Origin: Rhodospirillales bacterium
GTDB taxonomy: Bacteria; Pseudomonadota; Alphaproteobacteria; UBA828
Reading direction: 5' to 3'
DNA length: 45,449 nucleotides
Assembly (NCBI GenBank): GCA_028818565.1
Contig: JAPPNV010000029.1
Coordinates: forward strand, 1-45,449
Positions 41,819 through 42,500 of this stretch are shown piece after piece. Within the stretch, counting starts at the first letter, position 1; each line of letters starts with the position of its first letter. Below the pieces are notes generated by a model. It was not told the DNA's origin and ran no database searches. It saw only the letters and a program-made list of their open reading frames with translations. The position numbers and the translations under genes are program-made.

Positions 41819-41989
41819 TCAGAGCGCGTTACGTGCGCTTGTCACATAAGCACGAAGCGGGGGCGGATCAAATGCCGGCGCCCGAACGACCCCGCCGTGA
41901 CACTTGTCAGATCGCGCCTGGCACGACCGTGACGGTGGTGGGAGCAGACGGGAGCGAGGCTCCGCGTTGCGCTGTCCGAATCACGCCTC

Positions 41990-42019
41990 GCGGGAGCGTG
42001 GGGATGACCACGCTCCCGC
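41990..42019. terminator. GC-rich 12-bp perfect hairpin downstream of small ORF
   Basis: GCGGGAGCGTGG-GGATGA-CCACGCTCCCGC, 12 nt beyond the stop of the minus-strand small ORF; no U-tract. Confidence 0.6.
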
Positions 42020-42031
42020 AGGGCCGGCCGA

Positions 42032-42223
42032 TCAGCACGGGATGCCGGGCAACAGGCAGGCGTGCGCCGGCGCCGATCCGCCGATCATCACGACGGTCGT
42101 GGCGACGACCGCGATCGCCCCGATGAAGGCGAACAAGGCGGCGTGACGCAGCCGGATTTTCCTGTGCGGGCTCCCCACGCGTTGTTCGTTCTTGCGGTTG
42201 GTGGCTTGCTCCTGCGCGTTCAT
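42032..42223 (-). CDS. 63-aa small membrane or secreted peptide precursor of unknown function
   Basis: MNAQEQATNRKNEQRVGSPHRKIRLRHAALFAFIGAIAVVATTVVMIGGSAPAHACLLPGIPC; strong SD AGGAGGT (42228-42234), 4 nt before ATG. Confidence 0.72.
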   Translation of the reverse strand: MNAQEQATNRKNEQRVGSPHRKIRLRHAALFAFIGAIAVVATTVVMIGGSAPAHACLLPGIPC

Positions 42224-42336
42224 CGTTACCTCCTGGTTGCTTCCGTTTCACCTGTCGGCGTCAGCCGGCACTATGCCGAACCGGAGGTTACGTGGAGGCA
42301 CAGAGGCATAATATCCAATACTTATTTTGTCTCTGA

Positions 42337-42356
42337 ATTATAAGATATTCATATCT
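42337..42356 (-). promoter_or_regulatory. candidate promoter -10 TATAAT with inverted repeat in the spacer
   Basis: Minus-strand TATAAT at 42337-42342, immediately downstream of IR AGATAT-TC-ATATCT (42343-42356). No clear -35. Confidence 0.4.
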
Positions 42357-42500
42357 AATTGGCCGAACTCGGGGGCGATTGAGCAGCCAGAGCGACGGAA
42401 ACCGGGAACTGCCTGCGCCGCTATTGCCCGCAGGAAGCGACGCATCCAACCGAGTGCCAGTCAGCCGCCGGGCGCGCCCCGGCGTCTGTTCCTGCGATCG

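What the first reader, a model, noticed from the sequence alone, without database searches (positions are those of the whole stretch)
42032..42223. 63-aa precursor that could release a CLLPGIPC octapeptide
Seen: basic N-terminus, one hydrophobic segment (FAFIGAIAVVATTVVMIGG), then SAPAHA|CLLPGIPC. APAHA fits an AxA signal-peptidase I site; cleavage would leave an eight-residue peptide with Cys at both ends and a Pro-Gly turn, suited to a disulfide ring or metal binding. If uncleaved, it is a small membrane protein with a two-Cys periplasmic tail. It has an excellent SD and its own leader, yet lies between mutase and exporter genes where annotation pipelines may skip it.
Basis: partly seen in the sequence, partly recalled or inferred. 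Interest (0 to 1): 0.62.

Follow-up and report, generated by a model that had tools for sequence, protein, structure and literature searches.

The report
Small exported protein with two-cysteine tail
A tiny, previously uncatalogued gene found only in a few related sponge-associated bacteria makes a 63-residue exported protein that always ends in the same signal-peptidase-like site followed by an eight-residue tail with two cysteines; whether that tail is released as a peptide or stays on the membrane is not settled.

Summary
The ORF is real and lies on the minus strand (42223→42032). It belongs to an unnamed family: five intact copies, all exactly 63 aa, in 4 of 8 genomes of one genus (Rhodospirillales MAGs), plus one truncated copy. 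None was found elsewhere in the family, in several hundred class and phylum genomes, phages, plasmids or IMG/VR. AxA followed by Cys is invariant. Exactly eight residues follow AxA in every copy (CLLPGIPC, CLIFDYIC, CFFGIPCF, CFLGIPCW twice), each with a second Cys at position 7 or 8. Three orthologs at one site show purifying selection (dN/dS 0.26-0.45).

Each copy is a self-contained unit with an AT-rich promoter-like region, leader, ORF and a covarying hairpin after the stop. The copies sit at unrelated sites, two of which are empty in relatives. No neighbour is shared, so the mutase and the exporter are bystanders.

Both Cys are kept, but cleavage is unproven: the 20-residue hydrophobic stretch also fits an uncleaved anchor, and the Shine-Dalgarno may be held in a stem. 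That makes a HokB-like small membrane peptide a serious rival. Modest interest: new orphan family, function open.

The parts
42032..42223 (-). 63-aa small ORF (the copy in the finding)
   Evidence: translation; homologs; alignment
42083..42142 (-). codons 28-47, uncharged hydrophobic stretch of 20 residues (signal h-region or membrane anchor)
   Evidence: best 19-residue Kyte-Doolittle mean 2.57 from residue 29; last K/R at residue 26; helix 19-48 in a low-confidence AlphaFold model
42059..42067 (-). codons 53-55, AHA: AxA signal-peptidase-I-like site
   Evidence: A53, A55 and P52 invariant in five copies; no lipobox
42035..42058 (-). codons 56-63, eight-residue tail CLLPGIPC
   Evidence: tail is 8 residues in all five copies with C1 invariant and a second Cys at position 7 or 8
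42229..42234 (-). Shine-Dalgarno AGGAGG, 5 nt before ATG
   Evidence: sequence; AGGAGG kept in all five intact copies
42279..42294 (-). 5' arm of a predicted stem that pairs with the SD/start region (3' arm 42221-42238)
   Evidence: fold (SD unpaired probability 0.01); 45 of 48 cells paired in three leaders but only one two-sided change, so weak
42308..42337 (-). sigma-70-like promoter in the AT-rich block (TTCAGA-18-TATTAT)
   Evidence: block conserved in copies at other loci
41984..42025 (-). hairpin of up to 18 bp just after the stop codon, no U tract (terminator or 3' stabiliser)
   Evidence: 5 pairs with two-sided changes, 0/500 shuffles reach the observed percentage paired
41885..42500 (.). 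accessory block carrying the unit; absent between the mutase and exporter genes of G015 and G017

Best explanation
The ORF is a real, lineage-restricted accessory gene carried as a self-contained unit (promoter-like region, leader, 63-aa ORF, 3' hairpin). Shown: coding, family, conserved AxA-Cys...Cys end, fixed tail length, scattered loci. Inferred: the basic N-terminus stays in the cytoplasm, the Sec pathway inserts the hydrophobic segment, signal peptidase I cuts after AxA, and the released eight-residue peptide is closed by one Cys1-Cys7/8 disulfide in the oxidising periplasm. The variable residues inside the ring would set its specificity, as in a small secreted signal or antagonistic peptide.
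For: Five intact copies, all 63 aa, with P52, A53, A55 and C56 invariant and 8 residues after AxA in all. The second Cys is kept even though it shifts from position 8 to 7. The AxA site is preceded by GG and Pro, as at a helix end; the low-confidence model ends the helix at residue 48. In the gcv-site orthologs purifying selection is strong over residues 28-55 (dN/dS 0.13-0.21) and third codon positions change most. Between window and G019 the tail has about 9 nonsynonymous and <1 synonymous changes while both Cys stay. No canonical lipobox (-3 A, -2 H/N). The unit sits beside different genes each time, so it needs no dedicated partner; Sec and signal peptidase I are general machinery.
Against: No cleavage-site predictor or peptidomic data were available. 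The uncharged stretch is 20 residues long and the n-region 26-27 residues, longer than usual for cleaved signals; signal anchors typically have longer hydrophobic regions than signal peptides (PMC6589146). Strong constraint on the hydrophobic segment is more than a disposable signal needs. Window versus G019 has dN/dS about 1.3 overall, so relaxed constraint cannot be excluded for that pair. Only five sequences.
Confidence: 0.45

Rival explanations
1. Uncleaved single-span membrane peptide, N-in/C-out, whose two periplasmic Cys form an internal ring or link two chains, working like HokB. The mRNA hides its own Shine-Dalgarno and ends in a stable hairpin, so synthesis would be conditional; the product would act on the membrane (type I toxin-like or stress peptide).
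For: 20-residue hydrophobic stretch and basic N-terminus. Constraint on the hydrophobic part in orthologs. SD unpaired probability 0.01 in the window and G019 leaders and 0.17 in the truncated G019 copy. Covarying 3' hairpin. Scattered copies, empty sites and one decayed copy, as known for hok loci, many of which are broken. HokB has a positive N-terminus in the cytoplasm and a periplasmic Cys46 that makes a disulfide, and RBS sequestration is a type I theme (PMC8309996).
Against: No conserved antisense promoter in the six copies. No Hok/Gef or other Pfam family above cut-off. At 63 aa it is longer than the usual <60 aa. Known type I toxins are not described with an invariant AxA-Cys site. The SD stem has only one compensatory pair and is not consistent in the gcv-site copies.
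Confidence: 0.38
2. Tiny lipoprotein: Cys56 is lipidated and signal peptidase II cuts before it, leaving a lipid-anchored octapeptide.
For: Invariant Cys directly after a hydrophobic segment and small residues.
Against: Positions -3 A and -2 H/N do not fit the lipobox [LVI][ASTVI][GAS]C, Pro is at -4, and an eight-residue c-region (GGSAPAHA) precedes the Cys.
Confidence: 0.06
3. Mainly a structured small RNA; the ORF is incidental or decaying.
For: Covarying 3' hairpin; window versus G019 dN/dS about 1.3.
Against: Frame, length, start, SD and stop position kept in five copies; synonymous excess in the gcv-site clade.
Confidence: 0.05
4. Double-glycine leader: cut after ...VVMIGG, releasing a 14-residue SAPAHACLLPGIPC peptide through a peptidase-containing exporter; the adjacent ABC exporter would be its transporter.
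For: GG at 48-49 invariant; an ABC exporter is next door in the window.
Against: The exporter has only ABC_membrane and ABC_tran domains (an SMC_N hit is below cut-off), no C39 peptidase, and no exporter recurs beside the other copies. The segment before GG is a membrane-spanning stretch, not a typical GG leader.
Confidence: 0.03

Closest known systems
HokB / Hok-Gef type I toxins
   Same: Small single-span peptide, basic N-terminus inside, periplasmic C-terminus with a disulfide-forming Cys; multi-copy with degenerate loci; RBS sequestration (PMC8309996)
   Different: No sequence similarity at Pfam level, no antisense RNA signal found, 63 aa, invariant AxA-Cys site, and two Cys in an 8-residue tail
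Sec/signal peptidase I-secreted short peptides (general class)
   Same: Basic n-region, hydrophobic h-region, AxA c-region, short product
   Different: Very long n-region, 20-residue h-region, product of only 8 residues with two Cys; no named family matches
Entericidin-like small cell-envelope lipoproteins (from own knowledge)
   Same: Tiny exported product starting at Cys after a signal sequence
   Different: No lipobox and no Pfam match
Cyclic autoinducing peptides of the agr type (from own knowledge)
   Same: 7-9-residue Cys-containing product from a longer membrane-targeted precursor
   Different: Those are thiolactones made with a dedicated AgrB protease; here there is no partner gene and no C-terminal recognition tail

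Membership tests
Membrane-associated type I toxin | Small (<60 aa) hydrophobic peptide with one putative transmembrane helix | tested here: inconclusive
   63 aa; one 20-residue hydrophobic stretch, KD 2.5-2.8
Membrane-associated type I toxin | RNA antitoxin (antisense or divergent sRNA) | tested here: inconclusive
   No antisense promoter at a shared position in the six copies by consensus scan; no Rfam RNA in the window. RNA-seq would be needed to exclude one
Membrane-associated type I toxin | Sequestered ribosome-binding site | tested here: inconclusive
   Predicted in window, G019, the truncated G019 copy and G018; not in G000:C104 and G020; one compensatory pair
Membrane-associated type I toxin | Toxic when overexpressed | not testable with these tools
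   Needs an experiment
Hok/Gef family | Sequence match to the family profile | tested here: not met
   Pfam scans of all five members list only sub-threshold unrelated families
Signal peptidase I-processed secreted peptide | n-, h-, c-region with small residues at -3 and -1 | tested here: met
   A53 and A55 invariant, basic n-region, hydrophobic 28-47
Signal peptidase I-processed secreted peptide | Actual cleavage and release | not testable with these tools
   No cleavage predictor or mass spectrometry; the long h-region makes it uncertain
Bacterial lipoprotein | Lipobox [LVI][ASTVI][GAS]C | tested here: not met
   A-H/N-A-C in all five copies
Double-glycine leader peptide with PCAT exporter | Partner exporter with C39 peptidase domain | tested here: not met
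   Neighbour exporter has no such domain; no exporter recurs beside the other copies

The most novel reading that the evidence does not exclude
A Gram-negative symbiont lineage makes ring-shaped two-Cys octapeptides from a mobile-like, RNA-controlled minimal cassette that uses only Sec and signal peptidase I, with divergent rings in different strains acting as strain-specific signals or antagonists inside the sponge.
Probability: 0.12. Interest if true: 0.7.

Novelty: new member of a known kind. Interest (0 to 1): 0.36.

Why it matters
If the octapeptide is released it would be an unusually small disulfide peptide made by a bacterium with no dedicated maturation genes, in a lineage of sponge symbionts where chemical dialogue with host and neighbours is expected but hard to study. 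If it is not released, it is a new small membrane peptide family whose anatomy and gain/loss pattern point to conditional, possibly toxin-like use. Either way it is a concrete case of a conserved small gene that no curated family searched here (Pfam, NCBIfam, PADLOC) covers.

Tried and rejected
(1) A role tied to the mutase or exporter: rejected, because the unit is in a block absent from that junction in G015 and G017, G016 has no unit in its short mutase-exporter gap, and the unit sits elsewhere in other genomes. (2) A CxxPGxPC motif search: superseded, since homologs show that only the Cys and the length are kept. (3) Wider homologs: phylum and class samples give only partial hits (e.g. residues 10-36 or 12-53), mostly inside much longer frames; IMG/VR, phages and plasmids give none. 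(4) Lipoprotein, Tat (RR only in the gcv-site clade, none in window or G019 at that place) and double-glycine routes: judged unlikely. (5) Known RNA families over the unit: none; only tandem glycine riboswitches downstream of the gcv-site copy. (6) AlphaFold: low confidence (mean pLDDT 61), only indicates a helix 19-48 and a loose tail. (8) A literature search for a comparable secreted two-Cys octapeptide in Gram-negatives gave nothing relevant.

Full report
OBSERVATION. The ORF is exactly as described but on the minus strand: MNAQEQATNRKNEQRVGSPHRKIRLRHAALFAFIGAIAVVATTVVMIGGSAPAHACLLPGIPC, with AGGAGG five bases before ATG. Upstream is methylmalonyl-CoA mutase; downstream are an ABC exporter and then MeaB. 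No Pfam, NCBIfam or PADLOC family matches above its cut-off.

FAMILY. A second copy lies in the same genome (G000:C104:19238, 50% identical). Three more lie in genomes of the same genus: G019:C173, G018:C483 and G020:C80. Public titles of the relatives' contigs are 'Rhodospirillales bacterium' MAGs, isolates APA_bin_60, RHO3_bin_58 and RHO1_bin_88; that these are sponge metagenomes is my reading of the isolate codes, not a tool result. No match was found in the rest of the family or order. Class and phylum samples give only partial hits, mostly inside much longer frames. IMG/VR, phages and plasmids give none, and the pattern scan of 84,980 species genomes finds only the same three relatives. 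As far as these collections reach, the family is restricted to 4 of the 8 held genomes of one genus; two of the carriers are only 62-67% complete, and the scans beyond the genus are samples.

CONSERVATION. All five copies have 63 residues. Without gaps, 22 columns are invariant, among them Q4, E5, A7, R10, Q14, R26, T42-V45, I47-G49, P52, A53, A55 and C56. The tails are CLLPGIPC, CLIFDYIC, CFFGIPCF, CFLGIPCW and CFLGIPCW: always eight residues after AxA, always two Cys, the second at position 8 or 7. In the three copies at one shared site dN/dS (Nei-Gojobori) is 0.29, 0.45 and 0.26, with differences by codon position of 6/7/17, 10/7/19 and 8/10/26; constraint is tight over residues 28-55 (0.13-0.21). 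Window versus G019 is different: overall 1.35, with the tail carrying about 9 nonsynonymous against 0.7 synonymous changes while both Cys stay. That could be diversification of the ring or relaxed constraint; five sequences cannot tell.

THE UNIT. Upstream, an AT-rich promoter-like block and part of the leader are conserved between copies at unrelated sites. Downstream of the stop, a hairpin of up to 18 pairs without a U tract is conserved: 90% of cells paired, five pairs with changes on both sides, 0 of 500 shuffles reach that pairing. In the window, G019 and a truncated G019 copy the leader can fold back on the SD and start codon (SD unpaired probability 0.01, 0.01 and 0.17); 45 of 48 cells pair but only one pair changed on both sides, and shuffles often reach that, so this is suggestive only. 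In the gcv-site copies it is inconsistent.

LOCI. Three copies (G000, G018, G020) sit between a PhoX gene and the gcv operon, upstream of the operon's own promoter-like site and tandem glycine riboswitches. The same gap is empty in G014-G017 and G019. On a GcvT+Mcm tree, G015, G017 and G018 group with G000, and G019 with G020, though several nodes have low support, so the gcv-site copy was lost or gained more than once. The window copy lies in a block of about 616 nt; in G015 and G017 the mutase stop is followed almost directly by the exporter's upstream region. The G019 copy lies between a DUF6064 gene and a Gp49/HTH pair. G019:C202 holds a sixth, decayed copy: leader (E 2e-8) and N-terminus present, hydrophobic segment and tail gone. 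No neighbour recurs across loci.

MECHANISM. Shown: a conserved coding gene with a fixed exported-looking end. Inferred: Sec insertion with N-terminus inside, from a net charge of +3 to +6 before residue 28 and 0 or -1 after it. For cleavage: invariant AxA with Pro and Gly before it, fixed tail length, tail divergence around fixed Cys. Against cleavage: the 20-residue hydrophobic stretch (signal anchors typically have longer hydrophobic regions than signal peptides; PMC6589146) and the constraint on that stretch. I put cleavage to a disulfide-closed octapeptide at 0.45 and an uncleaved HokB-like membrane peptide at 0.38. HokB is the closest working analogue because it too is N-in with a disulfide-forming periplasmic Cys, type I mRNAs hide their RBS, and many hok copies are broken (PMC8309996); but no shared antisense promoter and no Hok homology were found, so membership is not claimed.

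VERDICT. A real, uncatalogued, narrowly distributed small exported protein family; ordinary in kind, open in function.

Noticed in passing
L028:9567-9772 (G000:C104): Tandem glycine riboswitch aptamers before gcvT; the paralogous small-ORF unit lies directly upstream of that operon's promoter-like site in three genomes and is absent there in five.
   Followed up: partly
G019:C202:20840-21009 (L054, L098): Decayed copy of the unit with the strongest leader hairpin of all (z about -4 to -5.5), followed by an ORF start but no membrane segment or tail.
   Followed up: partly
L085 (G018:C251) and L083 (G020:C144), after the mutase gene: The mutase-exporter junction is a variable site: by eye, G018 holds a RidA/YjgF-type gene there, in G020 a molybdopterin dehydrogenase FAD-subunit-like gene follows the mutase, and in G015 and G017 there is almost nothing.
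   Followed up: no
L035:2104-2825 (G019:C173): A Gp49-like/HTH pair that looks like a HigB-HigA toxin-antitoxin module lies a few hundred bases downstream of the G019 copy.
   Followed up: no
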